From Magnetospirillum sp. ME-1 (lineage in GTDB: Bacteria; Pseudomonadota; Alphaproteobacteria; Rhodospirillales; Magnetospirillaceae): a stretch of 64,000 nucleotides of DNA. Each line of letters starts with the position of its first letter. The first letter of the stretch is position 1. The stretch is taken from assembly GCF_002105535.1 (NCBI RefSeq), contig NZ_CP015848.1, positions 4,168,985 to 4,232,984 on the forward strand, given 5' to 3'. The position numbers were made by a program, and so were the translations under genes. The notes under the pieces were generated by a model. The model made no database searches and was not told where the DNA came from. It was given only the letters and a program-made list of their open reading frames with translations. Shown here in pieces: positions 11,375-27,193 of the stretch.

Positions 11375-11383
11375 AGCCGGAAC

Positions 11384-11413
11384 GGAAAAGCCGGGACCCG
11401 CACGGGCCCCGGC
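11384..11413 (-). terminator. intrinsic terminator of the RlpA-like gene
   Basis: Read on the minus strand, a GC-rich stem (GCCGGGGCCCG / GGGTCCCGGC) is followed by TTTTCC just past the stop of the gene at 11422-11820. Confidence 0.6.
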
Positions 11414-11421
11414 GCTTCGCA

Positions 11422-11820
11422 TTATTCCGTCCGCCCCACCACCTGCATCCTGACCGGAACGGCGCCCTGGTAGCTCATGTGAAGCCGCCGGGCCGCCGCC
11501 CGCGACAGGTCGATGGAGCGGCCCGCCACATAGGGGCCGCGATCGGTGACCATGACGATCACCGACTTTTTCTTCTTGTCCTGCCGGGACACCTCGACCA
11601 GCGTGCCGAAGGGCAGCGTCGGATGGGCGGCGGTCAAAGCCTTGGGGTCGAATTTTTCGCCACTGGCGGTGCGGTTGCCCTTGAAGCCGGGGCCGTACCA
11701 GGACGCGATGCCATAGCTTTCGCCTCCCAGACCCGCGGATCCAGCCATCTCAGCCGAGGCCGGAAGAGACGCGGCCGACACCACAATTGCGGCCAGCGCC
11801 GCGATCTTGAGCGTCTTCAT
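11422..11820 (-). CDS. RlpA-like septal ring/lytic transglycosylase-family protein (132 aa)
   Basis: A signal peptide (MKTLKIAALAAIVVSAASL, cleavage after ASA) precedes a double-psi beta-barrel with the RlpA signature: GIASWYGPGFKGNRTASGEKF, LTAAHPTLPFGTLVEVS, VMVTDRGPYVAGRSIDLS. RlpA proteins bind or cleave denuded peptidoglycan at the septum. This one lacks the C-terminal SPOR domain found in the long form. A second, smaller-barrel paralogue lies immediately upstream on the same strand (11947-12348). Confidence 0.85.
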   Translation of the reverse strand: MKTLKIAALAAIVVSAASLPASAEMAGSAGLGGESYGIASWYGPGFKGNRTASGEKFDPKALTAAHPTLPFGTLVEVSRQDKKKKSVIVMVTDRGPYVAGRSIDLSRAAARRLHMSYQGAVPVRMQVVGRTE

Positions 11821-11946
11821 CGTTTCAATCCTGCATCCTGCCTGCATTGACGTGCGGGGCATTCTGCCCAGGCTTTCCTAACGATCCGTGAACAGCTACC
11901 AGAATAAGAATGATTTGTAAACAAATATTGAATGCCCGTTAACAAT

Positions 11947-12348
11947 TCAGTCGGCGAAGCCGACGACCTGCAGCGAAACCGCGCCCGTTCCCTCGCCCAC
12001 CAGTCCCAGCTTGCGCGCCGCCGCCTCGGAGACGTCGAGAATGCGCCCGCCGCCCGGCCCGCGATCATTGATGCGCACCACCACGCTCCGGCCCCGATCC
12101 GGGCGGGAAACCTCGACCAATGTACCCATGGGCAGGGTGGGATGCGCCGCCGTCAGGTCGGAAGGATCAAACCGCTCGCCACTGGCAGTCCTACGCCCGC
12201 GGTATTTGGCACCATACCAAGACGCAATGCCGTATTCCCTCACGTCATCACGGGAATATGCGAGATCAGCAGCAATACATGTTGAATCACCAACAAAAAC
12301 TGCAAGGATCGTAATTAAGAATATACATATCATACAATGCCTTGCCAT
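11947..12348 (-). CDS. RlpA-like protein, second copy (133 aa)
   Basis: This paralogue of the preceding gene shares the double-psi barrel phrases YGIASWYGAKYRGRRTASGE, LTAAHPTLPMGTLVEVSRPD and VVRINDRGPGGG. The N-terminus is hydrophobic (MICIFLITILAVFVG) and looks like a signal peptide. Its 5' third and upstream region (about 12230-12420) are much more AT-rich than the neighbours, suggesting a different history. The start MARHCMICIF was chosen for the GAGGG eight bases upstream. Another ATG lies 15 bases earlier. Confidence 0.75.
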   Translation of the reverse strand: MARHCMICIFLITILAVFVGDSTCIAADLAYSRDDVREYGIASWYGAKYRGRRTASGERFDPSDLTAAHPTLPMGTLVEVSRPDRGRSVVVRINDRGPGGGRILDVSEAAARKLGLVGEGTGAVSLQVVGFAD

Positions 12349-12528
12349 TGTGAATTCCCTCATACACGCCATCATGCATAGCCACATTCATATCAAGGCC
12401 TCGAACTCTACACCGTGAGACTCATCACAGTTCGGAACAGGAAAAAAGCGGTAAGCCCTTGCCCAATACCCCCCGGATGGGGCATGTTTCCTCTCTTTCC
12501 CACTGTTTTCGGGCGGATCGAAATCGTC

Positions 12529-14169
12529 ATGGCCGAGCGCGTTTACCTCTACGACACCACGCTGCGCGACGGCGCGCAGACCCAGGGAGTGGATTTCTCC
12601 GCCGCCGACAAGGTGCGGATCGCGCGCGAGCTGGACCGAATCGGCATCGACTACGTGGAAGGCGGCTGGCCGGGGGCCAATCCCACCGACGACGCCTTCT
12701 TCGCCGACCCGCCCGCCTTCAAGCGTTCGCGGCTGACCGCCTTTGGCATGACGCGCCGCGCCGGCCGTTCCGCCGACAACGATCCGGGGCTGAACGCCCT
12801 GCTGGTCACCCCGGCCCGCGTCACCACCATGGTGGGCAAGAGCTGGGACTTCCAGGTCACCGTGGCGCTGGGCATCGAGCTGGACGAGAACCTGCGGATG
12901 ATCTCGGATTCGGTGCTGCATGCCCGTACCAAGGTCGATGAGGTGATGTTCGACGCCGAGCATTTCTTCGACGGCTACAAGGCCAACCCGGCCTATGCCC
13001 TGTCGGCGGTCAAGGCCGCCTACGAGGCCGGGGCCCGCTGGATGGTGCTGTGCGACACCAATGGCGGCACCCTGCCCCACGAGATGCACCGCATCGTCGG
13101 CGAGGTCATCGCCGCCGGCATCCCGGGCAGCCATCTGGGTGTTCACTGCCACAATGATTCCGATACCGCCGTGGCCAATTCCCTGGCCGCCGTCGAGGCC
13201 GGGGTGCGCCAGATCCAGGGCACGCTCAACGGCCTGGGCGAGCGTTGCGGCAACGCCAACCTGATCTCCATCATCCCGGCCCTGATGCTGAAGATGGGCT
13301 TCGACACCGGCATCGCGCCCGAAGACCTGAAGAACCTGGTCTCGGTGTCGCGCGCGCTGGACGAGGTGCTGGACCGCACGCCCAATCGCGGCCAGCCCTA
13401 TGTGGGCAAGTCGGCCTTCGCCCACAAGGGTGGCCTGCACGTCTCCGCCGTGGCCAAGGACCCCAAGTGCTACGAGCACGTGGACCCGTCGGCGGTGGGC
13501 AACATGCGCCACATCGTCATGTCCGATCAGGCGGGCCGCTCCAATCTGGTGGCGCGCCTGGGCGAGATCGGCGTCGATCTCGATCAGGTCAAGCGCGAAA
13601 GCCTGGTCCGGGTGGTCGAGCAGATGCAGGTCACCTTCGACGCCCGCGAGGCCACCGATCTGGTGGACCTGGTCAAGCGCCTGGAGCACGAGGGCTACGC
13701 CTACGACCAGGCCGCCGCCAGCTTCGAGCTGCTGGTGCGCCGCGCCTTGGGCGAGGTGCCGGAATACTTCCAGCTGGACCGCTACCGCGTCATCGACGAG
13801 CGCCGCCGCAACGCGGTGGGCGAGTGGATCACGCTCTCGGAAGCCACCGTCAAGGTCGAGGTGGGCGGCACCGAATACATGGAAGTGGGCGAAGGCACCG
13901 GCCCGGTCCACGCCTTCGACGTGGCGCTGAGAAAGGTGCTGACCCGGGTCTATCCGGCGCTCACCGCGCTGGAGCTCAAGGACTACCGGGTGCGCATCAC
14001 CGAAAGCACCGTGGGCACCGCCGCCAAGACCCGCGTCACCATCGAAAGCGAGGACGACAAGGGCCATCGCTGGACCACGGTGGGCGTGCACACCAACGTG
14101 CTGGAAGCCTCGCTGGAAGCCTTGCAGGATTCCATCACCTTCATGCTGTTCCGCTTCAAAGACGAGTGA
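12529..14169 (+). CDS. cimA: (R)-citramalate synthase
   Basis: This 546-aa enzyme of the DRE-TIM metallolyase family condenses pyruvate and acetyl-CoA into citramalate, the first step of the threonine-independent route to isoleucine. The N-terminus has the metal- and substrate-binding motif DTTLRDGAQTQGVDFS, with LGVHCHNDSDTAVANSLAAV and the GLGERCGNANL motif later in the barrel. The C-terminal 150 residues are a LeuA-type allosteric domain (YRVRITESTVGTAAKTRV). It differs from isopropylmalate synthase in the DGAQTQG phrase. The stop overlaps the next ATG (ATGA), so it is co-transcribed with the RNA methyltransferase gene. Confidence 0.9.
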   Translation: MAERVYLYDTTLRDGAQTQGVDFSAADKVRIARELDRIGIDYVEGGWPGANPTDDAFFADPPAFKRSRLTAFGMTRRAGRSADNDPGLNALLVTPARVTTMVGKSWDFQVTVALGIELDENLRMISDSVLHARTKVDEVMFDAEHFFDGYKANPAYALSAVKAAYEAGARWMVLCDTNGGTLPHEMHRIVGEVIAAGIPGSHLGVHCHNDSDTAVANSLAAVEAGVRQIQGTLNGLGERCGNANLISIIPALMLKMGFDTGIAPEDLKNLVSVSRALDEVLDRTPNRGQPYVGKSAFAHKGGLHVSAVAKDPKCYEHVDPSAVGNMRHIVMSDQAGRSNLVARLGEIGVDLDQVKRESLVRVVEQMQVTFDAREATDLVDLVKRLEHEGYAYDQAAASFELLVRRALGEVPEYFQLDRYRVIDERRRNAVGEWITLSEATVKVEVGGTEYMEVGEGTGPVHAFDVALRKVLTRVYPALTALELKDYRVRITESTVGTAAKTRVTIESEDDKGHRWTTVGVHTNVLEASLEALQDSITFMLFRFKDE

Positions 14170-14939
14170 TGAGCGAGACCACGCCCCGCGGCCCGGCCAT
14201 CATCCTGGTGCGGCCGCAACTGGCCGAGAACATGGGCACCGCGGCGCGGGCCATGCTCAATTGCGGCCTCACCGACCTGCGCATCGTCAGCCCTCGGGCC
14301 AACCCGCTGGACGACCGCGCCATCGCCGCCGCCTCGGGGGCCGACAAGGTGCTGCTGTCGGCGCGGGTGGTCGAGCACACCAAGGATGCGGTGGCGGACC
14401 TCAACCGGGTCTGGGCCACCACGGGCCGCGACCGCTACATGACCAAGCCGGTGTACACCCCGCGCGAGGCCGCCGGCCACATGCGCAATCTGGATTCGGA
14501 AGGGTTGCGCACCGGCGTGCTGTTCGGCCCCGAGCGGACCGGGCTGGAGAACGACGACGTCGCCCTGGCCGACACGGTGCTGACCGTGCCGCTCAACCCC
14601 GATTACTGCTCGCTCAACCTGGCCCAGGCCGTGCTGCTGATCGGCTACGAGTGGTTTCAGGCCGGCGTGTCCGGGTCACTGCCCGCCATGACCAAGGGAT
14701 GGCGCGATTCCGGCCCGGCACCCAAGGAGAAGCTGGTCCACTTCTTCGAGCATCTGGAGCGCGAACTGGACGAGTGCGGCTTCCTGCGCATTGCCGACAA
14801 GCGCCCGGTGATGGTGCGCAACATCCGCAACATGTTCCAGCGCGCCAACCTCACCGGCCAGGAAATCCAGACCCTGCACGGCATCGTTCATGAACTGGTG
14901 ACCTACCGCCACAAGAAGGGCAAAGCAGAATCGTCCTAG
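14169..14939 (+). CDS. trmJ: TrmH-family RNA methyltransferase (TrmJ-like)
   Basis: The 256-aa product has the knotted SPOUT fold motifs: IILVRPQLAENMGTAARAM at the N-terminus, LFGPERTGLENDDVALAD (motif 2) and VPLNPDYCSLNLAQAVLL (motif 3). The length and the C-terminal helical extension (HFFEHLERELDECGFL) match TrmJ, which 2'-O-methylates position 32 of tRNAs using SAM. The start codon overlaps the stop of cimA. The function is known for the family; tRNA specificity here is inferred. Confidence 0.8.
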   Translation: MSETTPRGPAIILVRPQLAENMGTAARAMLNCGLTDLRIVSPRANPLDDRAIAAASGADKVLLSARVVEHTKDAVADLNRVWATTGRDRYMTKPVYTPREAAGHMRNLDSEGLRTGVLFGPERTGLENDDVALADTVLTVPLNPDYCSLNLAQAVLLIGYEWFQAGVSGSLPAMTKGWRDSGPAPKEKLVHFFEHLERELDECGFLRIADKRPVMVRNIRNMFQRANLTGQEIQTLHGIVHELVTYRHKKGKAESS

Positions 14940-16867: not shown

Positions 16868-17530
16868 ATGAGCAAGCGTATTGAAGCCAAGTACAAGATC
16901 AATCGCCGCCTGGGCGCCAATCTGTGGGGCCGCTCCAAGTCCCCGCTGAACCGCGGCAAGGAGAACCCTCCCGGCCAGCACGGCCAGCGCCGCAAGAAGC
17001 CGTCCGATTTCGGCACCCAGCTGATGGCCAAGCAGAAGCTCAAGGGCTACTACGGCAACATCAGCGAGAAGCAGTTCCGCCGTCTGTATGACGAGGCCGT
17101 GCGCCGCCGTGGCGACACCTCCGAGAACCTGATCGGCCTGCTGGAGTGCCGCCTGGACGCGGTGGTCTACCGCCTGAAGTTCGCCCCCACCCCGTTCGCC
17201 GCCCGCCAGTTGGTCAACCACTGCCACATCCTGGTCAACGGCAAGCGCGTCAACATCCCGTCGTACCGCGTCAACGAAGGCGACGTCATCTCGGTGAAGA
17301 CCAAGTCCAAGGACATGGCCCTGATCCTCGAGGCCGCCCAGTCCGGCGAGCGCGACGTCCCCGACTATCTGGAAGTCGACCACAAGGAGATGAAGGGCAA
17401 GTTCGTCCGCGTCCCCAAGCTGGGCGATGTCCCCTACGCCGTGCAGATGGAACCGAACCTGGTCGTCGAATTCTATCTCGCGCTAACACGCATTACCAAA
17501 TTCTGCGGTAACGCAGGGTTTGGAACGTGA
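16868..17530 (+). CDS. rpsD: 30S ribosomal protein S4, with altered C-terminus
   Basis: S4 binds 16S rRNA early in 30S assembly. The family signature is present throughout ([33 protein letters not shown], the S4 RNA-binding domain [33 protein letters not shown]). Family members of this group end in VVEFYSR at about 205 aa. Here the frame runs on after VVEFY (residue 203) into 17 unrelated residues, because the sequence reads TATCTCGCGCTAA where TATTCGCGCTAA is expected. One extra base at 17477 shifts the frame into the inserted mobile element. If that base is an error, the true gene is about 16868-17486 with a normal end. Confidence 0.9.
17478..17486 (+). other. attachment core, left end of element 1 (in rpsD 3' end)
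   Basis: TCGCGCTAA is the last two codons plus stop of a normal rpsD. The same 9-mer occurs at 22300-22308, 24474-24482 and 26635-26643, delimiting three adjacent units. The next 40 bases, with the inverted repeat TTACC/GGTAA, are the same at the first three sites and absent from the fourth, which is followed by the old rpsD terminator. Confidence 0.75.
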
Positions 17531-17535
17531 TAAAG

Positions 17536-17570
17536 AAGCTGTCTGGCACATGGGGCTGGGCAGCTTTTTT
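17536..17570 (+). terminator. element-encoded terminator just after rpsD
   Basis: AAGCTGTCT pairs with GGGCAGCTT (two G-T pairs) and is followed by T6. Identical in form to copies at 22358-22392 and 24522-24556, it gives rpsD a new transcript end after insertion. The receiver gene starts 17 bases downstream. Confidence 0.65.
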
Positions 17571-17587
17571 GTGTGCGGGGTTACAAA

Positions 17588-18031
17588 ATGGGACGTTCAG
17601 CAGAGGTGCTACTTGTTGAGGATGACGATAGCTATACACGACTTGTGTTATTTATTTTTGAACTGATGGAATATAGCTGCACGATAGATACGGCAGCTAA
17701 CGGGGTAGAAGCAATAAGCAAGCTTGGAGAGCGCTTTAGCAGCGGAGAAAATTTCTATGATATAGTGATTACAGACATAAATATGGCATTTATTGACGGA
17801 ATTGAGCTAACGAAGTACATAAAATCATTTTACTCAAATATGAATATTCCAGTTGTTATTATGTCATCGCATGACGAATTTGAGGTTTGTGCGCAGGTAC
17901 AAAGTGCTGGCGCTGATCGCTTTATACAAAAACCCCCATGCATTGACGAGCTATTAAAATCACTTTCAAGCGCAATATTTGACTTTGTTGTCTTAAAAAA
18001 TAACGAGATTAATTTGGCGCAGAATGAGTGA
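17588..18031 (+). CDS. single-domain response regulator (receiver only), element 1
   Basis: This 147-aa protein is a CheY-like receiver with no output domain. Acidic pocket residues Asp12/Asp13, the phospho-acceptor Asp63 (VITDIN), Ser93/Ser94 (VIMSS) and Lys115 (FIQKP) are all present, so it should be phosphorylatable. It resembles the second receiver of element 2 (22982-23431). The start ATG has GGGG seven bases upstream; a GTG 15 bases earlier is less likely. No histidine kinase is encoded in the element, so it must use a host kinase, act as a phosphate sink, or bind a host partner. Codon use is AT-rich, unlike the host. Confidence 0.8.
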   Translation: MGRSAEVLLVEDDDSYTRLVLFIFELMEYSCTIDTAANGVEAISKLGERFSSGENFYDIVITDINMAFIDGIELTKYIKSFYSNMNIPVVIMSSHDEFEVCAQVQSAGADRFIQKPPCIDELLKSLSSAIFDFVVLKNNEINLAQNE

Positions 18032-18129
18032 ACGACAAGCATAATAATACAATAAATTTTCCGGCAACTATTACGACAACAAGACGCTATACTAACACGT
18101 AGCTAACAGGCACTTTTGAAGGTGCGGCT

Positions 18130-19347
18130 ATGGAAGTTGGACAGCGTGAAATTGAACTGCGTGGCGGTCGGATTGTGCTGTACACGCTGGCGAGCGACAA
18201 ACGGGGCATTTGGCAGGCGCGGTTTAGGCTTGGCACGGAACGCACGCTGGTGCGGCGCAGCACGAAAACGACGGACTTGGCGGAGGCGAAGCGGACGGCG
18301 GAGGAGCTGTACGAGGAGCTGCGGTACAAGCAACGCAACAATCACCCGTTAAAAGATCAAACATTCAAACAACTTGCGGACGATTACGTGCGGAAGGCAC
18401 AGCGGGAGACGCTGGAAGGACGCTTGAGCAAGGGACGGCTGGTGCTGGTTGAGGGCACGCTAAAACGCTATTTGCTCCCATTTTTCGGCAAAAAACCGAT
18501 CAACAACATAACGACGGCGGACTTTAACGATTACGACGACTGGCGGTTGGACTATTGGACGAAGGGCTACGGTGCGGACAGGAAGGTAGCAACAGCGGCG
18601 ACAACGCCTTCGGCGAAAACGCTGGTGATGGAACAGAGCATGTTGCGGCAGATTTTGAAGCACGGGCTGGAACAAGGGTCTTTGAAGCAACTGGCGTTTA
18701 TGAAGGCGAAACGGGCAAAAACGAACAGGCGCGGCGCTTTTGACGTGAAGGAATACAGGCTGCTGATATGGACGGCACGGCAGCGCACGCGATCTGCGGA
18801 GCATCCACGCGTTAAACGGGACAGGCAGCTTTTGGAACTTTACGTGCGGCTGCTGGTTGGGACGGGAATGCGGGTTGGCGAGGCGCGTGGGCTGACTTGG
18901 CGCGACGTTGAATTGATACACACGGGCAACGGCAAGCAAACGGAAACGCTGCGGCTTTGGGTGGATGGGAAGACGGGCAAGCGGGCGGTGATTGGGACAC
19001 GGGCGGCGAAGAACACATTGAAGAAGCTGCTGGCGCATTATGGTTGGAAGGACTTGGACGAGGCGCGGGCAAAGGGAAACGGGCTATTTACGAACAGCAG
19101 CGGCGAGGACATACACACGTTTGAGGTGGGTTTCAAAAATTTGATGGCGGCGGCCAACTTGGACACGGACAGGCACGGCAACGCGAGAACGCTTTACAGC
19201 CTGAGACACACCTACGCGACGTTTAGGCTGCTGTACGGGGGCACGGACGTTTACTTGCTGGCGCGGAACATGGGGACGAGCGTGCTGATGATTGAACAGC
19301 ATTATGGGCATGTAAGCACGACGCTGGCGGCTGACAAGCTGATCTGA
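18130..19347 (+). CDS. int: tyrosine recombinase/integrase, intact copy (405 aa)
   Basis: The N-terminal 70 residues resemble an arm-binding domain, residues about 75-185 are a SAM-like core-binding domain (TFKQLADDYVRKA), and the catalytic domain follows. Catalytic residues are visible: Arg248 (TGMRVGEARGLTW), Lys near 281, Arg359 (LYSLRHTYATF) and nucleophile Tyr392 (MIEQHYGHVS). The first position of the usual HxxR box is Tyr356, as in many proteobacterial integrases. It should recombine the TCGCGCTAA core at rpsD. It lies about 100 bases after the receiver gene, behind a leader (about 18084-18129) shared by all three units. It is the only complete integrase of the array. Confidence 0.9.
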   Translation: MEVGQREIELRGGRIVLYTLASDKRGIWQARFRLGTERTLVRRSTKTTDLAEAKRTAEELYEELRYKQRNNHPLKDQTFKQLADDYVRKAQRETLEGRLSKGRLVLVEGTLKRYLLPFFGKKPINNITTADFNDYDDWRLDYWTKGYGADRKVATAATTPSAKTLVMEQSMLRQILKHGLEQGSLKQLAFMKAKRAKTNRRGAFDVKEYRLLIWTARQRTRSAEHPRVKRDRQLLELYVRLLVGTGMRVGEARGLTWRDVELIHTGNGKQTETLRLWVDGKTGKRAVIGTRAAKNTLKKLLAHYGWKDLDEARAKGNGLFTNSSGEDIHTFEVGFKNLMAAANLDTDRHGNARTLYSLRHTYATFRLLYGGTDVYLLARNMGTSVLMIEQHYGHVSTTLAADKLI

Positions 19348-19359
19348 AAACGGGCGACG

Positions 19360-19378
19360 AACATACTTGCTGTATGTT
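19360..19378. promoter_or_regulatory. inverted repeat AACATAC-N5-GTATGTT, copy 1
   Basis: A perfect 7-bp inverted repeat lies just past the integrase stop. A near-identical copy with the same flanks (GCGAACATAC / GTATGTTGG) sits at 21390-21408. No T-run follows, so it is more likely a protein-binding site than a terminator. Confidence 0.4.
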
Positions 19379-19461
19379 GGTGGGACAAATCGGGGCGGAT
19401 TGCGGCGACGGCCAGGTCAGAATTTTGGAAAAATCGGTGATCACGCTGCATAAATAGTGGC

Positions 19462-19725
19462 ATGAAGGCGCGAGAGATTATTGACGCTGACGCTTGGCTG
19501 GCGAGGAAAAAGGAACGCAGGGGCGAGACGATAAGCGACGAGAGACGGCAATTGATGGCAATGATTTACAGCGATGCGACGCTGGAACGGGAACAGGTAG
19601 AGCTGGAACGGGCGAAACTTGAATTGGGGCAGATAAAGGCTGAGATAATAAAAATTAGGGCCGAAGCTGTTAAAAATCTGTCTTCGGCAAATACAGATGC
19701 AGTAAATGTTACTAAACTACAATAA
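19462..19725 (+). CDS. small coiled-coil protein (87 aa)
   Basis: The product is highly charged and helical, with heptad-like repeats in the second half (LEREQVELERAKLELGQIKA). It starts at ATG with a weak ribosome-binding site (AGTGG). No family was recognised. It is only in element 1; the deletions in elements 2 and 3 removed it. Confidence 0.55.
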   Translation: MKAREIIDADAWLARKKERRGETISDERRQLMAMIYSDATLEREQVELERAKLELGQIKAEIIKIRAEAVKNLSSANTDAVNVTKLQ

Positions 19726-19942
19726 TATAATCCGAAACAACCCCATTAAAACTGGCTAAATTGCTGGACTTTTTGGGGCTTGCTTGGAAATAACATTTTC
19801 TACAGTTTGTAATATATATTACATTACTTTACCAATATCTCCACTCTGTTCAATTCCACATCAGTATCCAAAACCACAAAATCCTCAAATCTCTCTTCCA
19901 CTCAAATCGTAATTTCAATTTCTATATCCAAGCACAGCTTGG
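19726..19942. other. AT-rich non-coding stretch
   Basis: About 220 bases, very AT-rich, lie between convergent genes (87-aa protein and Rep-like protein). No ORF with a ribosome-binding site and no clear terminator hairpin was seen. Confidence 0.3.
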
Positions 19943-20830
19943 TTATTTCAGTCTCCTTGTTATTAATCCCTGAAATCCTCCGCATCTATCAACGGCCATA
20001 ACTACCGACTTGGCTATTGGATAGCTATAGAGAGACGAATACTGAGTGCGAGTGAATTGTTTTTCGTCATCGTCGCTTGCGACACTCTTTGAATGCTGCA
20101 ACCTGAACTTAAGCATGTAGGTTGCCATATTATGTAAATTTTCATCGTGCGTTTTGTCTTTATGAAGGTCCGTAAAGTCTACTTGATGGCTGCCATTGTA
20201 GTATTTTCGCATTTCGCGCTCTATGTCGTATTTTGGATTTTGAAACGACGGAATATACATAACTGCATGAAAATGAAGGAGAAAACATGCAGTTTTAGCG
20301 TCCTTGTCGTATCCGAGCGCCGATAGCGTATTTACTTTTTTGCCAGATAATTCTTCATCTCCTGCGATTGCATCAATCTCAAATGCCCCAATAAATCGTA
20401 TATTGTCATGAGCACAATCCTGTATCTTGTCAAATAAATTGTCCATATCCTTCCGCAGCTTTTTAATAAGATTGCTGTTTATATCGTTGGGGTTGTAATG
20501 GACAGAATGCAATATCGTAAGCAATCGCAACTTGTCAGCGCCTACACTCCCAAACTTATCAATCACATATTTTGCAAATAATTCTTGTTTCTTATGTCGG
20601 CACATCGGACAGAATGGCTGATTGCATTTTTGGCTTGCGGAGCAATTCATAATTCGCAAAGCAAGCGCGGTAGCCTTTTTGTCAGAAAAGTCTCGGCACA
20701 AACTTTCAACAACATACTTCCGTTGCCTTATCTTACTGTCTGCGCGATCACCGATTTTATTCTCGTATCTGTATTTCTGCTCAAATGCAGATTTGTCGGC
20801 AACTTTATCTAAAGTGACTTTCTCGCCCAT
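19943..20830 (-). CDS. HUH-type replication initiator (Rep)-like protein (295 aa)
   Basis: Two hallmark motifs of HUH endonucleases are visible: His186-Phe-His188 in LLHFHAVMYIP (metal-binding HUH) and Tyr238 to Lys241 in NMATYMLKFRL (the YxxK motif carrying the nicking tyrosine). An N-terminal cysteine cluster (Cys63, Cys69, Cys74, Cys77 in CSASQKCNQPFCPMCRHKK) resembles the zinc-finger-like segment of rolling-circle Rep proteins. It could nick an origin in the excised circle. The gene is AT-rich and opposite in strand to the integrase. Its start follows a 34-aa ORF by nine bases with a weak ribosome-binding site, suggesting translational coupling. The exact Rep family is not certain. Confidence 0.6.
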   Translation of the reverse strand: MGEKVTLDKVADKSAFEQKYRYENKIGDRADSKIRQRKYVVESLCRDFSDKKATALALRIMNCSASQKCNQPFCPMCRHKKQELFAKYVIDKFGSVGADKLRLLTILHSVHYNPNDINSNLIKKLRKDMDNLFDKIQDCAHDNIRFIGAFEIDAIAGDEELSGKKVNTLSALGYDKDAKTACFLLHFHAVMYIPSFQNPKYDIEREMRKYYNGSHQVDFTDLHKDKTHDENLHNMATYMLKFRLQHSKSVASDDDEKQFTRTQYSSLYSYPIAKSVVMAVDRCGGFQGLITRRLK

Positions 20831-20839
20831 TGCGGCAGC

Positions 20840-20944
20840 CTACTTTGAATAATTGACGGTAAGAAAAATTGCATATAGCGCAAGCGCGTTAATATCCACT
20901 CGCTTTCCATCAAATCCATATTCCACTAAAATTCCTTGTTTCAT
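20840..20944 (-). CDS. 34-aa ORF upstream of the Rep-like gene
   Basis: The ATG has a good ribosome-binding site (GGGAG, eight bases upstream). The product begins MKQGILVEYGFDGKR and has a hydrophobic second half. The stop lies nine bases before the Rep start, so it could couple or regulate Rep translation. No homologue is recognised. Confidence 0.4.
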   Translation of the reverse strand: MKQGILVEYGFDGKRVDINALALYAIFLTVNYSK

Positions 20945-21042
20945 TTTTCACTCTCCCAAAATATATGCGCTACTTCCGCAGCGGTATTTATGATCTTTGG
21001 CATAAATAATATTGGTAATTCAAAAATATATTTGGAGGAATT

Positions 21043-21321
21043 ATGAACGCATTACAAAACGCATATATAATCTTAAAAACCAACAACTTAACCGAAGGTC
21101 AATACGACTTTAGCAGAAAGTGGCTTGGACGTGATCGGAGCTATTATGGCAGCATGAAAGCGCGGCAACGGCAAGCGGGGCTGCGGACGATGCTGACATT
21201 GGCTGGAAATTTGACGAAGGCATTGGTCAGGGCGAAAGCGGAACAGCGCGGCAAAGACGCGGCGGTGCTGGAGAAACTGAGTGGGCGAATTTGGGACAGC
21301 GTGATGGTGGGACGGTGCTGA
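21043..21321 (+). CDS. small conserved-looking element protein (92 aa)
   Basis: It has a strong GGAGG ribosome-binding site five bases before ATG. The phrase YDFSRKWLGRDRSYYGSMKA resembles a small family of phage/ICE proteins with an FS-x-WLGR-S-YY core (DUF6626-like, from memory and uncertain). The rest is helical and basic and could bind nucleic acid. It is divergent from the 34-aa/Rep pair, so the roughly 100-bp AT-rich gap probably holds both promoters. Confidence 0.6.
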   Translation: MNALQNAYIILKTNNLTEGQYDFSRKWLGRDRSYYGSMKARQRQAGLRTMLTLAGNLTKALVRAKAEQRGKDAAVLEKLSGRIWDSVMVGRC

Positions 21322-21735
21322 TTTGCGTCCACGTCCAGCATGTTGTCGTGTAACACGACACTTCCCTGGCGCTGAACGACATGGGGGCGAACATACATGC
21401 TGTATGTTGGGGCGCGATCCGCAAAACGCATTGCACGTCCCTACTCCCACTTTGATCCACGCAAAACGTCGGAAACGCCCACAGCAGCAGCAAAGCAACT
21501 TGGGGAGCTACCTACACACAGCGCAGTTGAAACTGCGCTGTGTGACGACGAGCGGAGCTTGGCGGTTGAAATAGTATAAACCGAGCGCCGAAAATCTGAT
21601 CAGGTTTAGTACAACTACATTATATGAAAATACGCTACATAGGACAACGATTACAGCAACTTACAGATATATCGGTCACTGATAGCACAACACAGACATT
21701 ACTGTATTGCAAGCGAACAGCTTGGAGTACACAAC
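21322..21735. other. hairpin-rich non-coding region of element 1 (possible origin)
   Basis: No convincing gene is seen here. Three perfect hairpins lie in 200 bases: TGTCGTG/CACGACA with a 3-nt loop (21344-21360), AACATAC/GTATGTT (21390-21408) and a 14-bp stem CACACAGCGCAGTT/AACTGCGCTGTGTG with a 2-nt loop (21515-21544). Such structures are typical of nick or single-strand origins of rolling-circle elements, which fits the HUH Rep-like gene nearby. This is inference. Confidence 0.4.
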
Positions 21736-22179
21736 ATGACTGCATTTGCGAAATTGAAACTGACCACTGCGACGCGCAAGACGGAAAATTTGAGCGCGGA
21801 ACAGTATGCGCGGCAACGGGTGCTTGGAAACTTGGCGGAACAGCTTGGCTTGGTTAAGGCCATGCTGGACGGCACGGCGTTTACGGTGAAGCAGACGCGA
21901 TACAAGACGGACGAGAACGGCGAGCGCGTTGGATACGAGCGCAGTAAGCGGCTGCGGCAATGGTTTTGGCAGGACACTGACGGTAACTGGCTGCTGGAAT
22001 TGCGCTATGGTAATCGGGCTTTGAAACTGAGCGGCGAGAACACTGCGGTGGTGGCTGGCACGAAGGAGCAGCTTGCGAGCGTTATTGAAACGCTGATGGA
22101 AGCTGTGACGGTGGGCGAGCTGGACAAGGCCCTGGCGGCTGCAAAGAAGGATCGCTTGGTCATGCTGCGGAAAGGCTGA
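21736..22179 (+). CDS. element protein of 147 aa (DUF6641-like)
   Basis: The ATG has GGAG about nine bases upstream. It is a soluble protein with a basic N-terminus (FAKLKLTTATRK) and the phrases AMLDGTAFTVKQTRYK, KRLRQWFWQDTDGNWLLEL and LASVIETLMEAV. It resembles a family of small ICE/phage proteins that I recall as DUF6641; function unknown. Its C-terminal part is the same segment fused to the integrase remnants in elements 2 (24219-24343) and 3 (26203-26514), so the 3' half of this gene survives in all three units. Confidence 0.65.
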   Translation: MTAFAKLKLTTATRKTENLSAEQYARQRVLGNLAEQLGLVKAMLDGTAFTVKQTRYKTDENGERVGYERSKRLRQWFWQDTDGNWLLELRYGNRALKLSGENTAVVAGTKEQLASVIETLMEAVTVGELDKALAAAKKDRLVMLRKG

Positions 22180-22299
22180 AAGCGCAAAGGTGGTAGATTG
22201 CGGCGATACTTTTGGGGTATAACAGGCATGGTGCTTACCGCTTTCTATGGCGCAAAAAGTGTAGCAGAAACAGCACTATGCTCGTTTTTGTTTTATGAT

Positions 22300-22308
22300 T
22301 CGCGCTAA
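22300..22308 (+). other. attachment core between elements 1 and 2
   Basis: This is TCGCGCTAA followed by the same 40-base leader as at 17478, marking the junction of two tandem units. Confidence 0.7.
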
Positions 22309-22357
22309 CACGCATTACCAAATTCTGCGGTAACGCAGGGTTTGGAACGTGACGAAG

Positions 22358-22392
22358 AAGCTGTCTGGCACATGGTGTTGGGCAGCTTTTTT
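22358..22392 (+). terminator. leader terminator, element 2
   Basis: This is the same hairpin and T6 as at 17536-17570. It ends 14 bases before the ATG of the first receiver gene, so that gene relies on read-through or on a promoter inside the leader. Confidence 0.6.
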
Positions 22393-22406
22393 GTTGGGCG
22401 GGTGAG

Positions 22407-22868
22407 ATGACGCAACACGTACAGAATGCGAGGATACTGATTATTGACGACAACGTTGCGGAAGCGACGTTGACCAAGCTGACGCTACAGGCGGACAGGA
22501 TTGGCTACAGCATTGAGCACGTGACGGACGGCTATACGGGTATTGATAAGCTGAAGCAAGCTGCGCTGACAGACGATGCGTATCATATTGTAATACTGGA
22601 CGTAAATATGCCGGTTATTTCAGGCTGCGAAACGCTTGGGATTATACGCAATACGGGTGAAATAGCGGACACATACGTGGCGATTTTGACAAGCTTGGAG
22701 TGCAAGACAGATTGCCCACGCGACTTGTATTTATGCAACAAAAAGAAAGCTGATATATACTTGCACAAGGAAACGACGCTTGACGATTTTGAAGCGGAGC
22801 TTATACAGCTAAAAAATGGATATGAAGAGCGCAGACGACTGACTGCGATTAATGCCAAAGACGTATAA
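22407..22868 (+). CDS. single-domain response regulator, element 2 (first)
   Basis: This 153-aa receiver-only protein has Asp14/Asp15 (LIIDDN), phospho-acceptor Asp65 (VILDVNMPVISG), Thr95/Ser96 (AILTS) and Lys121 (LHKE) in place. A Cys-rich insertion (ECKTDCPRDLYLC) sits between strand 4 and helix 4. It is nearly identical to the receiver of element 3 but different from the receiver of element 1. The ribosome-binding site is GGGTGAG. It is the first gene after the att leader. Confidence 0.8.
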   Translation: MTQHVQNARILIIDDNVAEATLTKLTLQADRIGYSIEHVTDGYTGIDKLKQAALTDDAYHIVILDVNMPVISGCETLGIIRNTGEIADTYVAILTSLECKTDCPRDLYLCNKKKADIYLHKETTLDDFEAELIQLKNGYEERRRLTAINAKDV

Positions 22869-22981
22869 GCAATTCTTTAGATTGCAAGACGCAATAACAC
22901 ACATAGCAAGCACACACTTTGGGCAAAACATCTGCTTGGAACACTCATCTGTGCAGCTTTTTTGTTGGGAAAGTGGGAACG

Positions 22982-23431
22982 ATGACGAACAAAGCAAACA
23001 TACTTGTGGCTGACGATGACGAATGTTACGGGAACTTTGTGGCGGCAGTCGCAAGACGACTTGGATACAGCTGCAGAGTAGACAGGGCAAAGAACGGGGC
23101 AGAAGCAATAGAAAGAATTAAAGAGCGCTGTGATGACGGCATGTTTTTGTATGACATTGTAATAACCGATATAAACATGCCAGCAATTAATGGACTTGAC
23201 CTAACTAAACACATACGCTCACATGAGCGTAAAAAAGATATCACCGTAATCATAATGTCGTCGCAGGATGCGCGCGACGTTGAAAAAATAGCATACGATG
23301 CTGGGGCTGACATTTTCATTCAAAAAACAGGAAAAATCAAAGAAGTAGAAGACGCGCTGATAAGAGCAATTTCTATCGCAGCTATTACAAAAGGAAAAAC
23401 AATAGCGCGGCGAACAGACCAGAAAAAATAG
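22982..23431 (+). CDS. single-domain response regulator, element 2 (second)
   Basis: This 149-aa receiver has Asp11-Asp13, Asp63 (VITDINMPAINGLDL), Ser93/Ser94 and Lys115 (FIQK). It is related to the receiver of element 1 (shared YSC, NG-EAI, YDIVITDIN, VIIMSS, GAD-FIQK). The ATG follows GGGAA by a few bases. Having both receiver types in one unit suggests shuffling of cargo between related elements. It is followed about 78 bases later by the integrase remnant. Confidence 0.8.
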   Translation: MTNKANILVADDDECYGNFVAAVARRLGYSCRVDRAKNGAEAIERIKERCDDGMFLYDIVITDINMPAINGLDLTKHIRSHERKKDITVIIMSSQDARDVEKIAYDAGADIFIQKTGKIKEVEDALIRAISIAAITKGKTIARRTDQKK

Positions 23432-23508
23432 ACAATCATTCGGAAGCACTACTGACTAACTTATTATATAATAACACGTAGCTAACAGGCACTTTTGAAG
23501 GTGCGGCT

Positions 23509-23976
23509 ATGGAAGTTGGACAGCGTGAAATTGAACTGCGTGGCGGTCGGATTGTGCTGTACACGCTGGCGAGCGACAAACGGGGCATTTGGCAGGCGCG
23601 TTTTAGACTTGGCACGGATCGCACGCTGGTGCGGCGCAGCACGAAAACGACGGACTTGGCGGAGGCGAAGCGGACAGCGGAGGAGCTGTACGAGGAGCTG
23701 CGCTATAAGCAACGCAACAATCACCCATTAAAAGATCAAACATTCAAACAGCTTGCGGACGATTACGTGCGCAAGGCACAGCGGGAGACGCTGGAAGGAC
23801 GCTTGAGTAATGGACGGCTGGTGCTGGTTGAGGGCACGTTAAAACGCTACTTGCTCCCATTTTTCGGCAAAAAACCGATCAACAGCATAACGACGGCGGA
23901 TTTCAACGATTACGACGACTGGCGGCTGGACTATGCGGGTTGGCGAGGCGCGTGGACTGACTTGGCGGGACGTTGA
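23509..23976 (+). pseudogene. integrase, N-terminal fragment (element 2)
   Basis: The first 141 residues match the element 1 integrase almost exactly (through DYDDWRLDY). A 314-bp deletion then joins position-equivalents 18555 and 18870 of element 1 and shifts the frame, giving a 14-residue nonsense tail. The catalytic domain is not in frame, so this is inactive as a recombinase; the DNA-binding domains could still be made. Confidence 0.75.
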
Positions 23977-24343
23977 ACTGATACACACGGGCAACGGCAA
24001 GCAAACGGAAACGCTGCGGCTTTGGGTGGATGGGAAGACGGGCAAGCGGGCGGTGATTGGGACACGGGCGGCGAAGAACACGTTGAAGAAGCTGCTGGCA
24101 CATTATGGTTGGAAGGACTTGGACGAGGCGCGGGCAAAGGGAAACGGGCTGTTTACGAACAGCAACGGCGAGGACATACACACGTTTGAGGTGGGTTTCA
24201 AAAATTTGATGGCGGCGGCTGGGACGAAGGAGCAGCTTGCGAGCGTTATTGAAACGCTGATGGAGGCTGTGACGGTGGGCGAGCTGGACAAGGCCCTGGC
24301 GGCTGCAAAGAAGGAACGCTTGGTCATGCTGCGGAAAGGGTGA
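23933..24343 (+). pseudogene. integrase middle fragment fused to the 147-aa protein C-terminus (element 2)
   Basis: This frame resumes at MRVGEARGLTW of the integrase (first catalytic Arg) and continues to FEVGFKNLMAAA. It then joins in frame to GTKEQLASVIETLMEAV of the 147-aa element protein. The HxxR box and nucleophile Tyr are lost. It overlaps the N-terminal fragment by about 44 bases in another frame. It has no convincing ribosome-binding site, so expression is doubtful. Confidence 0.65.
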
Positions 24344-24473
24344 AAGCGCAAAGGTGGTAGATTGCGGCGATACTTTTGGGGTATAACAGGCATGGTGCTT
24401 ACCGCTTTTTATGGCGCAAAAAGTGTAGCAGAAACAGCGCAATACTCGTATTAGCTGCATTATTCGCGCTAAC

Positions 24474-24482
24474 ACGCATTAC
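24474..24482 (+). other. attachment core between elements 2 and 3
   Basis: This is TCGCGCTAA with the shared 40-base leader, as at 17478 and 22300. Confidence 0.7.
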
Positions 24483-24521
24483 CAAATTCTGCGGTAACGC
24501 AGGGTTTGCAACGTGACGAAG

Positions 24522-24556
24522 AAGCTGTCTGGCACATGGTGTTGGGCAGCTTTTTT
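24522..24556 (+). terminator. leader terminator, element 3
   Basis: AAGCTGTCT/GGGCAGCTT hairpin with T6, as in the other two units, ending 14 bases before the receiver ATG. Confidence 0.6.
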
Positions 24557-24570
24557 GTTGGGTGGGTGAG

Positions 24571-25032
24571 ATGACGCAACACGTGCAGAATGCGAGGATA
24601 CTGATTATTGACGACAACGTTGCGGAAGCGACGTTGACCAAGCTGACGCTACAGGCTGGCAGGATTGGCTACAGCATTGAGCACGTGACGGATGGCTATA
24701 CGGGTATTGATAAGCTGAAGCAAGCTGCGCGGACAGAAGGCGCGTATCACATTGTAATACTGGACGTAAATATGCCGGTTATCTCAGGTTGTGAAACGCT
24801 TGAAATAATACGTAACACGGGTGAAATTGCGGACACATACGTGGCGATTTTGACAAGCTTGCAGTGCAAGACAGATTGCCCACGCGACTTGTATTTATGC
24901 CACAAAAAGAAAGCTGATATATACTTGCACAAGGAAACGACGCTTGACGATTTTGAAACGGAGCTTATACGGCTAAAGACTGACTTTGAAGAGCGTAGGC
25001 AACTGGCAGCTGATAATACGAAAGACTTATAG
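24571..25032 (+). CDS. single-domain response regulator, element 3
   Basis: This 153-aa protein is nearly identical to the first receiver of element 2 over its whole length (LIIDDN, Asp65 in VILDVNMPVISG, AILTS, LHKE). It diverges most in the last 25 residues. All phosphorylation-site residues are kept, which argues that the gene is still under selection although its neighbour integrase is broken. The start is chosen at the ATG equivalent to element 2; a GTG nine bases upstream is possible. Confidence 0.8.
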   Translation: MTQHVQNARILIIDDNVAEATLTKLTLQAGRIGYSIEHVTDGYTGIDKLKQAARTEGAYHIVILDVNMPVISGCETLEIIRNTGEIADTYVAILTSLQCKTDCPRDLYLCHKKKADIYLHKETTLDDFETELIRLKTDFEERRQLAADNTKDL

Positions 25033-25098
25033 GTCATTCTTTAGATAACAAGACGCTATACTAACACGTAGCTAACAGGCACTTTTGAAGGTGCGGCT

Positions 25099-26514
25099 AT
25101 GGAAGTTGGACAGCGTGAAATTGAACTGCGTGGCGGTCGGATTGTGCTGTACACGCTGGCGAGCGACAAACGGGGCATTTGGCAGGCGCGTTTTAGACTT
25201 GGCACGGAACGCACGCTGGTGCGGCGGAGCACGAAAACGACGGACTTGGCGGAGGCGAAGCGGACGGCGGAGGAGCTGTACGAGGAGCTGCGCTACAAGC
25301 AACGCAACAATCACCCCTTAAAAGATCAAACATTCAAACAACTTGCGGACGATTACATTCGGAAGGCACAGCGGGAAACGCAGGAAGGACGCTTGAGTAA
25401 GGGACGGTTGGTGCTGGTTGAGGGCACGCTAAAACGCTACCTGCTCCCATTTTTCGGCAAAAAACCGATCAACAGCATAACGACGGCGGACTTTAACGAC
25501 TACGACGACTGGCGCTTGGACTATTGGACGAAGGGCTACGGTGCGGACAGGAAGGTAGCAACAGCGGCGACAACGCCTTCGGCGAAAACGCTGGTGATGG
25601 AACAGAGCATGTTGCGGCAGATTTTGAAGCACGGGCTGGAACAAGGGTCTTTGAAGCAACTGGCGTTTATGAAGGCGAAGCGGGCAAAGACAAATAGGCG
25701 CGGCGCTTTTGACGTGAAGGAATACAGGCTGCTGATATGGACGGCACGGCAGCGCACGCGATCTGCTGAACATCCACGCGTTAAACGGGACAGGCAACTT
25801 TTGGAACTTTACGTGCGGCTGCTGGTTGGGACGGGTATGCGGGTTGGTGAGGCGCGTGGACTGACTTGGCGGGACGTTGAATTGATACACACGGGCAACG
25901 GCAAGCAAACGGAAACGCTGCGGCTGTGGGTGGATGGCAAGACGGGCAAGCGGGCGGTGATTGGGACACGGGCGGCGCGGAACACGTTGAAGAAGCTGCT
26001 GGCGCATTATGGTTGGAAGGACTTGGACGAGGCGCGGGCAAAGGGAAACGGGCTATTTACGAACAGCAACGGCGAGGACATACACACGTTTGAGGTGGGC
26101 TTTAAGAATTTGATGGCGGCGGCCAACTTGGACACGGACAGGCACGGCAACGCGAGAACGCTTTATAGCCTGAGACACACCTACGCGACGTTTAGGCTGC
26201 TGGACGGCACGGCGTTTACGGTGAAGCAGACGCGATACAAGACGGACGAGAACGGCGAGCGTGTTGGATACGAGCGCAGCAAGCGGCTGCGGCAATGGTT
26301 TTGGCAGGACACTGACGGTAACTGGCTGCTGGAATTGCGCTATGGTAATCGGCCATTGAAACTGAGTGGCGAGAACACTGCGGTGGTGGCTGGAACGAAG
26401 GAGCAGCTTGCGAGCGTTATTGAAACGCTGATGGAGGCTGTGACGGTGGGCGAGTTGGACAAGGCCCTGGCCATTGCAAAAAAGGAACGCTTGGCCATGC
26501 TGCGGAAAGGCTGA
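25099..26514 (+). CDS. chimeric integrase fused to the 147-aa element protein (471 aa)
   Basis: Residues 1-368 match the element 1 integrase, including the first catalytic Arg (TGMRVGEARG) and the SLRHTYATF box. After FRLL the frame passes directly into DGTAFTVKQTRYKTDENGE of the 147-aa protein and runs to its normal end (MLRKG). The nucleophile Tyr392 of the parent is lost, so it should not cut DNA. The join lies at a short match (GCTG-ACGG) and keeps the frame open. It may be a dead product or a DNA-binding fusion that occupies att sites. Confidence 0.75.
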   Translation: MEVGQREIELRGGRIVLYTLASDKRGIWQARFRLGTERTLVRRSTKTTDLAEAKRTAEELYEELRYKQRNNHPLKDQTFKQLADDYIRKAQRETQEGRLSKGRLVLVEGTLKRYLLPFFGKKPINSITTADFNDYDDWRLDYWTKGYGADRKVATAATTPSAKTLVMEQSMLRQILKHGLEQGSLKQLAFMKAKRAKTNRRGAFDVKEYRLLIWTARQRTRSAEHPRVKRDRQLLELYVRLLVGTGMRVGEARGLTWRDVELIHTGNGKQTETLRLWVDGKTGKRAVIGTRAARNTLKKLLAHYGWKDLDEARAKGNGLFTNSNGEDIHTFEVGFKNLMAAANLDTDRHGNARTLYSLRHTYATFRLLDGTAFTVKQTRYKTDENGERVGYERSKRLRQWFWQDTDGNWLLELRYGNRPLKLSGENTAVVAGTKEQLASVIETLMEAVTVGELDKALAIAKKERLAMLRKG

Positions 26515-26634
26515 CGGCGCAAAGGTGGTAGATTGCGGCAATACTTTTGAGCTATAACAGATTTGAGGCTGATAGCTTTTTATGGCGTAAAAAGTGCAGC
26601 AAAAACAATAAGACACTCGCATTAGCTGCATAAT

Positions 26635-26643
26635 TCGCGCTAA
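26635..26643 (+). other. attachment core, right end (remnant of rpsD stop)
   Basis: TCGCGCTAA here is followed not by the element leader but by host-like GC-rich sequence and a perfect intrinsic terminator. This is the expected original rpsD 3' flank. Confidence 0.75.
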
Positions 26644-26779: not shown

Positions 26780-27193
26780 GTGCGACACCTCAAGGTGCTG
26801 ATCGTCGAAGACAATGTGGCCGACGCCAGACTGCAGCAATTCGCCCTGGGCGCGCAGGTGTTCGACTGTGCGGTGACCTGGGTGGATTCCATCGACGGGG
26901 CGGTCGAGCACCTCAATCAAAGAATCGATCAGACCGGCGGGCCAGACACCGACGTGGTCCTGCTGGACGGCCAGGTGGGGTCCGAGGACGCCTCGGAACT
27001 GCTGATCTACATGAAGCTCGACCCGCTGCTGAAGGACGTTCCGGTCATCGTCACGACCGGCTCCCAGGATATCCGCAAGCACCAGGGCTGGATCGCCCAG
27101 GGGGCCGAATCCGTCATGCAGAAATGCTTCGAGATCGAGGACCTGGAAAGCGGCCTGTCGGTGCTCGAGGTCTATGCCAGGGACGTTCCCTAA
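26780..27193 (+). CDS. single-domain response regulator (host)
   Basis: This 137-aa receiver-only protein with host-like GC starts at GTG with AAGGA upstream. Asp10/Asp11 (VEDN), Asp63 (VVLLDGQVG) and Lys115 (VMQK) are present; the usual Thr/Ser lies in VTTGSQ. The loop after Asp63 lacks the usual MP motif. It belongs to the receiver group that includes Rcp1-like proteins. Before the insertions it would have been the first gene after rpsD. Confidence 0.75.
   Translation: MRHLKVLIVEDNVADARLQQFALGAQVFDCAVTWVDSIDGAVEHLNQRIDQTGGPDTDVVLLDGQVGSEDASELLIYMKLDPLLKDVPVIVTTGSQDIRKHQGWIAQGAESVMQKCFEIEDLESGLSVLEVYARDVP

What the first reader, a model, noticed from the sequence alone, without database searches (positions are those of the whole stretch)
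17478..26643. Three related integrative elements in tandem at the 3' end of rpsD
The 9-mer TCGCGCTAA (end of a normal rpsD) occurs at 17478, 22300, 24474 and 26635. The three intervening units share the same leader (inverted repeat, terminator hairpin), the same promoter-like segment before the integrase and the same 3' end. The units are AT-richer than the host and hold receiver genes, tyrosine integrases and, in unit 1, a Rep-like gene. I know of integrative elements using tRNA genes and a few ribosomal genes, but I do not recall rpsD as a documented site. Repeated use of the left att site would build the array.
Basis: partly seen in the sequence, partly recalled or inferred. Interest (0 to 1): 0.85.

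Follow-up and report, generated by a model that had tools for sequence, protein, structure and literature searches.

The report
Stacked mobile elements behind ribosomal gene
Three related mobile DNA elements have inserted one after another at the end of a ribosomal protein gene in a Magnetospirillum-like bacterium, and this little-known element family nearly always carries small signal-receiver proteins.

Summary
In detail: TCGCGCTAA occurs four times (third copy at 24464, not 24474) and bounds three AT-rich units between rpsD and its native terminator. Relatives show site-specific insertion: one has the empty site, and seven of 52 family genomes with rpsD (the window's included) plus one outside carry such elements there, singly or in tandem. 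In two hosts the displaced right end keeps a different stop (TGA, TAG) while rpsD carries the element's TAA.

Unit 1 looks complete (receiver, integrase, probable HUH Rep, DUF6626, ORF147). Units 2 and 3 are deletion derivatives with broken integrases. Each window unit's integrase start is slightly nearer to elements in other genomes than to its neighbours, so the array most likely grew by separate acquisitions.

Unusual is that 13 of 14 elements carry stand-alone receivers of several groups, some apparently non-phosphorylatable. The window's only rpsD also has an extra C that frameshifts its end; it may be a sequencing error.

The parts
16868..17477 (+). rpsD (ribosomal protein S4), target gene; reading frame runs on to 17530 because of an extra C next to the 9-mer, giving [20 protein letters not shown] instead of EFYSR
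17478..17486 (+). attL core copy 1 (TCGCGCTAA)
17478..22299 (+). unit 1, 4822 bp, apparently complete element
17487..17575 (+). leader: hairpin with GUAA loop, then strong terminator-like hairpin with U tract
   Evidence: fold z-score -5.95 for 17478-17575
17573..18031 (+). receiver-only protein RR1 (group b)
   Evidence: PF00072 E 3e-20
18130..19347 (+). intact tyrosine integrase, 405 aa, conserved R248, K281, R359-H360, Y392
19360..19378 (.). palindrome AACATAC-N5-GTATGTT, copy 1, left of the Rep module
19462..19725 (+). ORF87, conserved, unknown function
19943..20830 (-). Rep: four invariant Cys, HFH and YxxK motifs; probable HUH endonuclease
   Evidence: weak Rep_1 and IS91 zinc matches
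21043..21321 (+). DUF6626 protein (phrog_33694)
21390..21408 (.). palindrome copy 2, right of the Rep module
21736..22179 (+). ORF147 (phrog_31551), conserved last gene
22300..24463 (+). unit 2, 2164 bp deletion derivative: two receivers, integrase broken by deletions of about 314 and 2901 bp relative to unit 1
22407..22868 (+). receiver-only protein RR2 (group a)
   Evidence: PF00072 E 2e-11
22919..23431 (+). receiver-only protein RR2b (group b), preceded by or overlapping a decayed second leader at 22925-22965
23509..24343 (+). broken integrase fragments, second one fused in frame to the end of ORF147
24464..26634 (+). unit 3, 2171 bp deletion derivative
24571..25032 (+). receiver-only protein RR3 (group a), 89% to RR2
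25099..26514 (+). integrase residues 1 to about 370 fused in frame to ORF147 after a 2634 bp deletion; catalytic Tyr392 lost
26635..26643 (+). attR core copy 4; native rpsD flank and terminator follow
26780..27193 (+). host receiver gene next to rpsD; possible relic of an older element

Best explanation
This is an array of three members of one family of small (3.8-6.1 kb when complete) site-specific integrative elements whose tyrosine integrase recombines an attP with the last codons of rpsD. Indicated by comparison of genomes: the crossover lies upstream of the last two bases of the rpsD stop codon, and the element's left end gives rpsD its final Ser-Arg codons, a TAA stop and a new terminator, so the gene is kept while the native terminator is pushed to the far side. 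The three units were most likely acquired separately. Units 2 and 3 lost the Rep module and integrase activity by deletion but kept both ends. Inferred: unit 1 (or a later arrival) can excise as a circle, is copied by its HUH Rep, and can act in trans on units 2 and 3. Inferred with lower confidence: the stand-alone receivers are a cargo module that taps a host phosphorelay to the element's benefit.
For: Empty site in G043: 608 of 618 aligned rpsD columns identical to the window; right flank 940 of 1034 aligned columns identical (with about 130 extra bases in the window); the first 69 bases, 9-mer included, the same. Occupied rpsD in G039 (2 units), G047 (2), G021 (1), G038 (2), G034 (at least 2, contigs broken), G003 (1) and Magnetovibrio blakemorei MV-1 (1). 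Another stop at the right end: TGA in G038, TAG in G047, while rpsD has TAA. Across 317 genomes of the order (best candidates of each genome scored, at most five), all 12 full-length integrases with E<1e-190 are in these elements: 11 on the same contig as rpsD, 1 on a 3.9-kb contig that also holds the right end of another unit; apart from the window's own unit 3 the next is at 1e-80. Integrase first 426 nt: window units 95.3-96.2% to each other, nearest kin in other genomes 96.7-96.9%. dN/dS 0.096 for the integrase (36 pairs) and 0.18 for receiver group a (21 pairs from 7 of 8 members). Unit 1's Rep is 96% identical to that of G021, a different genus.
Against: No excision, circle or transfer has been observed. 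Rep is assigned by motifs and weak profile matches only (best Rep_1 E 0.0017, and an unrelated RING profile reaches 0.012); three distant Rep relatives matched no Pfam family, and the structure prediction failed (pLDDT 32). The differences used to argue for separate acquisition are small (96.9 versus 96.2%), and tree supports are 0.76-0.87 around the window units and 0.19 at one node. The receiver function has no support from any partner gene. MV-1's element has no receiver, and one RR3-like receiver lies away from rpsD.
Confidence: 0.92

Rival explanations
1. The array arose by local tandem duplication of one inserted element followed by divergence and deletion, not by separate arrivals.
For: Units lie head to tail with the same leader and ends. 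Receivers of units 2 and 3 are 89% alike. The right ends of units 1 and 2 are 91% alike.
Against: Each unit's integrase start is closer to an element in another genome than to its neighbours, by 0.5 to 0.9 points. Unit 1 carries a different receiver group (about 23% identity to RR2 and RR3). In G038 the two units have integrases of 35% and 99% identity to unit 1's, so arrays of unlike elements do form.
Confidence: 0.12
2. The elements are phage satellites or defective filamentous proviruses that depend on a helper phage for spread.
For: DUF6626 and ORF147 have PHROG families. The MV-1 element encodes a REP_ORF2-G2P protein (PF23343). Size and HUH replication fit.
Against: No capsid, coat, packaging or phage-interference family among the window ORFs scanned, apart from a chance-level match of Rep to a virion PHROG at E 0.064. 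No tblastn match of Rep, ORF147 or DUF6626 in 50,697 phage records and no Rep relative confirmed in viral contigs.
Confidence: 0.2
3. The HUH protein is a relaxase and the elements are mobilised by conjugation (IME proper).
For: HUH chemistry is shared by Reps and relaxases (recalled). IMEs commonly use 3' ends of housekeeping genes such as those of ribosomal proteins, and some carry Rep proteins (PMC5704250, passages and part of a table).
Against: No relaxase or coupling-protein family among the window ORFs scanned; oriT was not searched. The nearest weak profiles are Rep_1 and the IS91 zinc domain.
Confidence: 0.3
4. The units are remnants with no current mobility, and the 9-mers are only the record of old insertions.
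For: Units 2 and 3 have broken integrases. The window's rpsD carries a frameshift.
Against: Unit 1 integrase and Rep are open, and the integrase is under purifying selection in the family. Near-identical integrases occur across genera (first 426 nt identical in G021 and G034).
Confidence: 0.15

Closest known systems
Integrative and mobilizable elements (IMEs) and their decayed cis-mobilizable derivatives (CIMEs) in 3' ends of housekeeping genes (PMC5704250, passages seen)
   Same: Single tyrosine integrase, 3' end of a ribosomal protein gene restored by the element, Rep-type protein, tandem accretion of intact and decayed units.
   Different: No relaxase identified and oriT not searched; small size; receiver proteins as near-constant cargo.
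SagCI and GBS PICI1/PICI2 at rpsD of Streptococcus agalactiae (PMC4129442 and PMC7487436, passages)
   Same: Same target gene; SagCI is reported in its 3' end.
   Different: PICI1/2 are about 15 kb with a primase, in Firmicutes; no receiver cargo mentioned in the passages read.
Prophage phiMP19Msa1099b in rpsD of Macrococcus (PMC12016501, passage)
   Same: Integration in rpsD.
   Different: 38.6-kb prophage.
G291 element at tRNA-Ala
   Same: Same backbone set: integrase, Rep, DUF6626, ORF147; bounded by a direct repeat of at least 40 bp at the tRNA 3' end.
   Different: Different target and integrase (32%), no receiver found by the receiver profile, other cargo.

Membership tests
Site-specific integrative element with tyrosine integrase | Integrase with catalytic residues beside an att site | tested here: met
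   Unit 1: PF00589; R248, K281, R359-H360, Y392 invariant in 5 sequences; their catalytic role is recalled
Site-specific integrative element with tyrosine integrase | Direct repeats at both ends and an empty site in relatives | tested here: met
Site-specific integrative element with tyrosine integrase | Excision as a circle | not testable with these tools
   no reads or culture
IME | Relaxase or oriT allowing conjugative mobilisation | tested here: inconclusive
   HUH motifs in Rep but only weak Rep_1 / IS91 matches, no relaxase family; oriT not searched
CIME (units 2 and 3) | att sites kept, integration genes lost | tested here: met
   9-mers at both ends, integrase broken
CIME (units 2 and 3) | Mobilised in cis with a neighbour | not testable with these tools
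   needs an experiment
PICI or phage satellite | Primase, interference or packaging genes | tested here: not met
   No such family above chance level in the Pfam, PHROG and NCBIfam scans of 8 to 10 window ORFs; most ORFs of the other elements were not scanned
PICI or phage satellite | Dependence on a helper phage | not testable with these tools
   needs an experiment
Integron cassette array | IntI integrase and attC cassettes | tested here: not met
   integrase_gron 20 bits against a cut-off of 265; every window unit has its own integrase or remnant; attC not searched
HUH (Rep_1-like) replication initiators | HUH and YxxK motifs | tested here: met
   H185-F-H187 and Y237-x-x-K240 invariant in 9 sequences
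HUH (Rep_1-like) replication initiators | Score above the Pfam cut-off | tested here: not met
   best Rep_1 match E 0.0017, in 5 of 9 members; the Rep_1 scores shown (13-17 bits) are below the cut-off of 33.2

The most novel reading that the evidence does not exclude
These elements are vehicles that carry and reshuffle stand-alone phospho-receivers, including non-phosphorylatable ones, to retune a host phosphorelay. Tandem arrays at rpsD serve as the place where receiver modules are exchanged between elements, and hosts sometimes keep a receiver next to rpsD after the element is lost.
Probability: 0.3. Interest if true: 0.72.

Novelty: new variant of a known kind. Interest (0 to 1): 0.52.

Why it matters
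It defines, with exact ends, a family of very small integrative elements that uses rpsD in Magnetospirillum-like Alphaproteobacteria and supplies both the coding end and a terminator for an essential gene. Its near-constant cargo of stand-alone receivers, with no partner kinase seen on the window units or in the unassigned ORFs of eight other elements, raises the testable question of why a mobile element needs host signalling. The differing stop codons at the right ends in two hosts give clean natural evidence for where the crossover lies.

Tried and rejected
Phage and plasmid collections gave no protein match for Rep (phages, plasmids), ORF147 (phages) or DUF6626 (phages). The viral-contig scan with Rep found no confirmed relative. 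The scan with the integrase gave 26 loci; tblastn with the element's other proteins and rpsD at E 1e-5 found none of these beside the integrases. PDB profile search with Rep: none. AlphaFold on Rep with a two-sequence alignment gave pLDDT 32, so no fold search was made. A second fold, of ORF147, was prepared but not run.

An integron-like array was considered and rejected: each window unit has its own integrase gene or remnant. Local duplication was considered and found less likely. A functional second leader inside unit 2 was considered; its fold is no better than shuffles (z -0.69). One leader alignment was spoiled by a wrong coordinate for G039 and was not used for any count. G192 has a third integrase lineage (33%) directly after rpsD, but no matching right repeat was found in the 18 kb fetched, so it is not counted as an element.

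Rows left out or short: G054 was read at the rpsD junction only and not scanned further. G011, G026 and G031 had no rpsD match. The two G034 units are cut by contig ends. Five of the scanned flanks were shorter than 1,200 bases, MV-1's among them. The order-wide and class-wide integrase searches scored at most five and four candidates per genome.
Full report
Check of the observation. Shuffles expect 0.30 copies and none of 100 reached four. GC is 0.479, 0.494 and 0.532 in the units against 0.662 outside them in the window.

Proof of insertion. The window lies in a single-contig genome of 4,551,873 bases. Among 55 genomes of the family, 52 have an rpsD match. I read all 52 junctions: 50, G054, and the window itself. 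Seven are occupied by this element family: the window, G003, G021, G034, G038, G039 and G047; an eighth, Magnetovibrio blakemorei MV-1, lies outside the family. G043 has the empty site. 608 of 618 aligned rpsD columns are identical to the window's, and 940 of 1034 aligned columns of its downstream flank match what follows 26634, with about 130 extra bases in the window further on; the first 69 bases, 9-mer included, are the same. From recall of genome sizes only, G039 may be AMB-1, G021 MSR-1, G043 XM-1 and the window strain ME-1; I did not test this.

Where the crossover lies. In G038 the right end of the last unit reads TCGCGCTGA and in G047 TCGCGCTAG, while rpsD in both ends TCGCGCTAA. The simplest reading is that the host's own stop stayed with the right flank and the element's TAA was given to rpsD; of 44 unoccupied flanks, 22 use TAA and 22 TGA. 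ATTCGCGCT is present at 12 of 14 right ends; G047_2 and G003 have ACTCGCGCT. The element's first 98 bases carry a hairpin with a GUAA loop and a strong terminator-like hairpin followed by U (z-scores -5.95, -7.55, -6.62 for the three units). The native terminator sits beyond the right end. So the insertion keeps both the coding end and a terminator for rpsD.

The family. Profile scans (MV-1 checked again) give one usual order: leader, receiver, integrase, sometimes a second receiver, ORF87, Rep on the opposite strand, DUF6626, ORF147, right end. G038_A and G003 use a second integrase lineage (35-37% to the window's), placed directly after the leader and before the receivers, and each also has a 190-201 aa ORF with the look of a second tyrosine recombinase (by eye; a similar ORF is in G291). 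Across 317 genomes of the order, with at most five candidates scored in each, the integrase profile shows a clean gap: 12 full-length hits below 1e-190, all in these elements, then, apart from the window's own unit 3, nothing stronger than 1e-80. Eleven of the 12 share a contig with rpsD; the twelfth is on a 3,862-base contig of G034 that also holds the right end of another unit. Rep hits of 40% identity or more, nine of them in 317 genomes, all lie in these elements; three weaker ones (G291, G306, G049) lie elsewhere.

Rep. Nine sequences share four Cys (62, 68, 73, 76), H185-F-H187 and Y237-x-x-K240 without exception, the marks of an HUH nicking enzyme with a zinc ribbon (family knowledge, from recall). 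Pfam matches are weak: Rep_1 in 5 of 9 (best 0.0017) and the IS91 zinc domain in 6 of 9 (best 0.0048), with a RING profile in 3 of 9 (best 0.012) as a warning. Three distant relatives matched no Pfam family. In MV-1 no relative of this Rep was found, and a different HUH protein is encoded in the element (PF23343, E 5.6e-8, above cut-off), next to a DUF6626 protein, as expected if the slot encodes the replication function. A palindrome AACATAC-N5-GTATGTT, allowing two mismatches, occurs on both sides of the Rep module in seven of the ten complete elements tested (win1, G039_1, G047_1, G047_2, G021_1, G038_A, G038_B); G039_2, G003 and MV-1 lack the pair. I take it as a candidate origin or operator; this is inference.

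History of the array. In the first 426 nt of the integrase the window units are 95.3-96.2% alike, but their nearest relatives are elsewhere: unit 1 with a G034 unit (96.7%), unit 2 with the same (96.9%), unit 3 with G021 and another G034 unit (96.9%). The margins are small and tree supports moderate. Relative to unit 1, unit 3 lost about 2,634 bases between integrase codon ~370 and ORF147, and unit 2 about 314 and 2,901 bases; 2,634 and 2,901 are multiples of three and the joined frames stay open. Both units lack the catalytic Tyr392. Unit 2 has two receivers, the second beside a decayed copy of the leader (71% to the leader hairpin; no better fold than shuffles), as if two neighbouring units had been fused by a deletion. 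This resembles the accretion and decay path described for IMEs and CIMEs (PMC5704250, passages).

The receivers. Thirteen of 14 elements (the two cut G034 units included) carry one or two stand-alone receivers; MV-1 does not. They fall into at least six sequence groups by my reading of the alignment, with alike flanks around unlike receivers (RR1 versus RR2/RR3 about 23%). By eye, most keep the acidic pair, the phosphorylated Asp, Thr/Ser and Lys. One group in G047_1, G038_A and G039_2 lacks the Asp and Lys; the two of these three that I scanned score below the Pfam receiver cut-off. Group a is under purifying selection, dN/dS 0.18 over 21 pairs from seven of its eight members. In 25 relatives, the window included, RR3 gave eight hits at E 1e-20: seven in rpsD elements (two of them the window's own) and one elsewhere, in G039 at 4,058,491. 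No kinase or output domain was found among the window ORFs scanned; in the unassigned ORFs of 75 aa or more of nine elements none looks like a kinase by eye, but these were not profile-scanned. The idea that the receivers tap a host phosphorelay is inference; I give it 0.3.

A possible relic. A host receiver gene sits directly after the native rpsD terminator in the window (26780-27193), in G043, G046 and G022, and after the right end in G034. Of the 46 flanks scanned (up to 6 kb, five under 1.2 kb) no other had a receiver next to rpsD except the G003 element; G025 has two further off, beyond 3.6 kb. Apart from orthologs, its best matches in 25 relatives are element receivers of G038_A (41%) and G039_2 (39%), then G045 (32%). 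It may be a receiver left by an old element, or the source of element receivers; the direction is not shown.

The rpsD frameshift. The window's only rpsD match reads TATcTCGCGCTAA; all 51 other flanks (50 of the family and MV-1) end in frame with Ser-Arg and a stop. The protein would end [20 protein letters not shown] instead of EFYSR. It may be a real mutation or a sequencing error; these tools cannot decide.

Wider relatives and what is known. In G291 the same backbone genes with another integrase (32%) lie between direct repeats of at least 40 bases at a tRNA-Ala gene, 7.5 kb apart, with no receiver found. An even sample of 385 genomes of the class gave no further member of the rpsD integrase clade (best other hit 3.5e-70 outside the window's genome) and one distant Rep. 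rpsD is a published integration site in Streptococcus agalactiae and Macrococcus (PMC4129442, PMC7487436, PMC12016501; passages only). My searches for Magnetospirillum with integrase, for rpsD with integrase and Magnetospirillum, for DUF6626, and for receivers with integrative elements or mobile elements listed no paper that by its title or abstract start describes this family; subscription papers are mostly not in that library.

Verdict. The elements, their target and the accretion are well supported. The kind is known; the variant is set apart by its receiver cargo, its small size and its way of keeping rpsD whole.

Noticed in passing
17477: Extra C frameshifts the end of the only rpsD match in the genome; 51 other flanks read end in frame.
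   Followed up: partly
26780-27193: Host receiver gene next to rpsD; patchy in relatives and closest, apart from orthologs, to receivers of rpsD elements.
   Followed up: partly
L181 (G192) 4149-5690: Third integrase lineage (33%) directly after rpsD in another family; no right repeat found in 18 kb.
   Followed up: partly
L166 (G291) 6992-14560: Sibling element with the same backbone at tRNA-Ala(ggc), bounded by a direct repeat of at least 40 bp.
   Followed up: partly
L200 (G039) 10486-10944: Receiver 73% identical to RR3 away from rpsD, with no integrase of this profile found within the 19 kb read.
   Followed up: no
19360-19378 and 21390-21408: Palindrome AACATAC-N5-GTATGTT flanks the Rep module; the pair is present in seven of ten complete elements tested.
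   Followed up: partly
L104 (MV-1 element): Rep replaced by a different HUH protein (PF23343) and receiver slot holding an unknown 75-aa ORF.
   Followed up: partly
L052 (G038_A, element 2595-3167) and L082 (G003): A 190-201 aa ORF that looks like a second tyrosine recombinase; a similar one is in the G291 element.
   Followed up: no
L174, L175, L176, L180, L182, L183, L185: ORF147 relatives lie near other integrases elsewhere in Magnetospirillum genomes; in the four scanned (L174, L175, L176, L180) a tRNA-Gln(ctg) gene lies close by.
   Followed up: no
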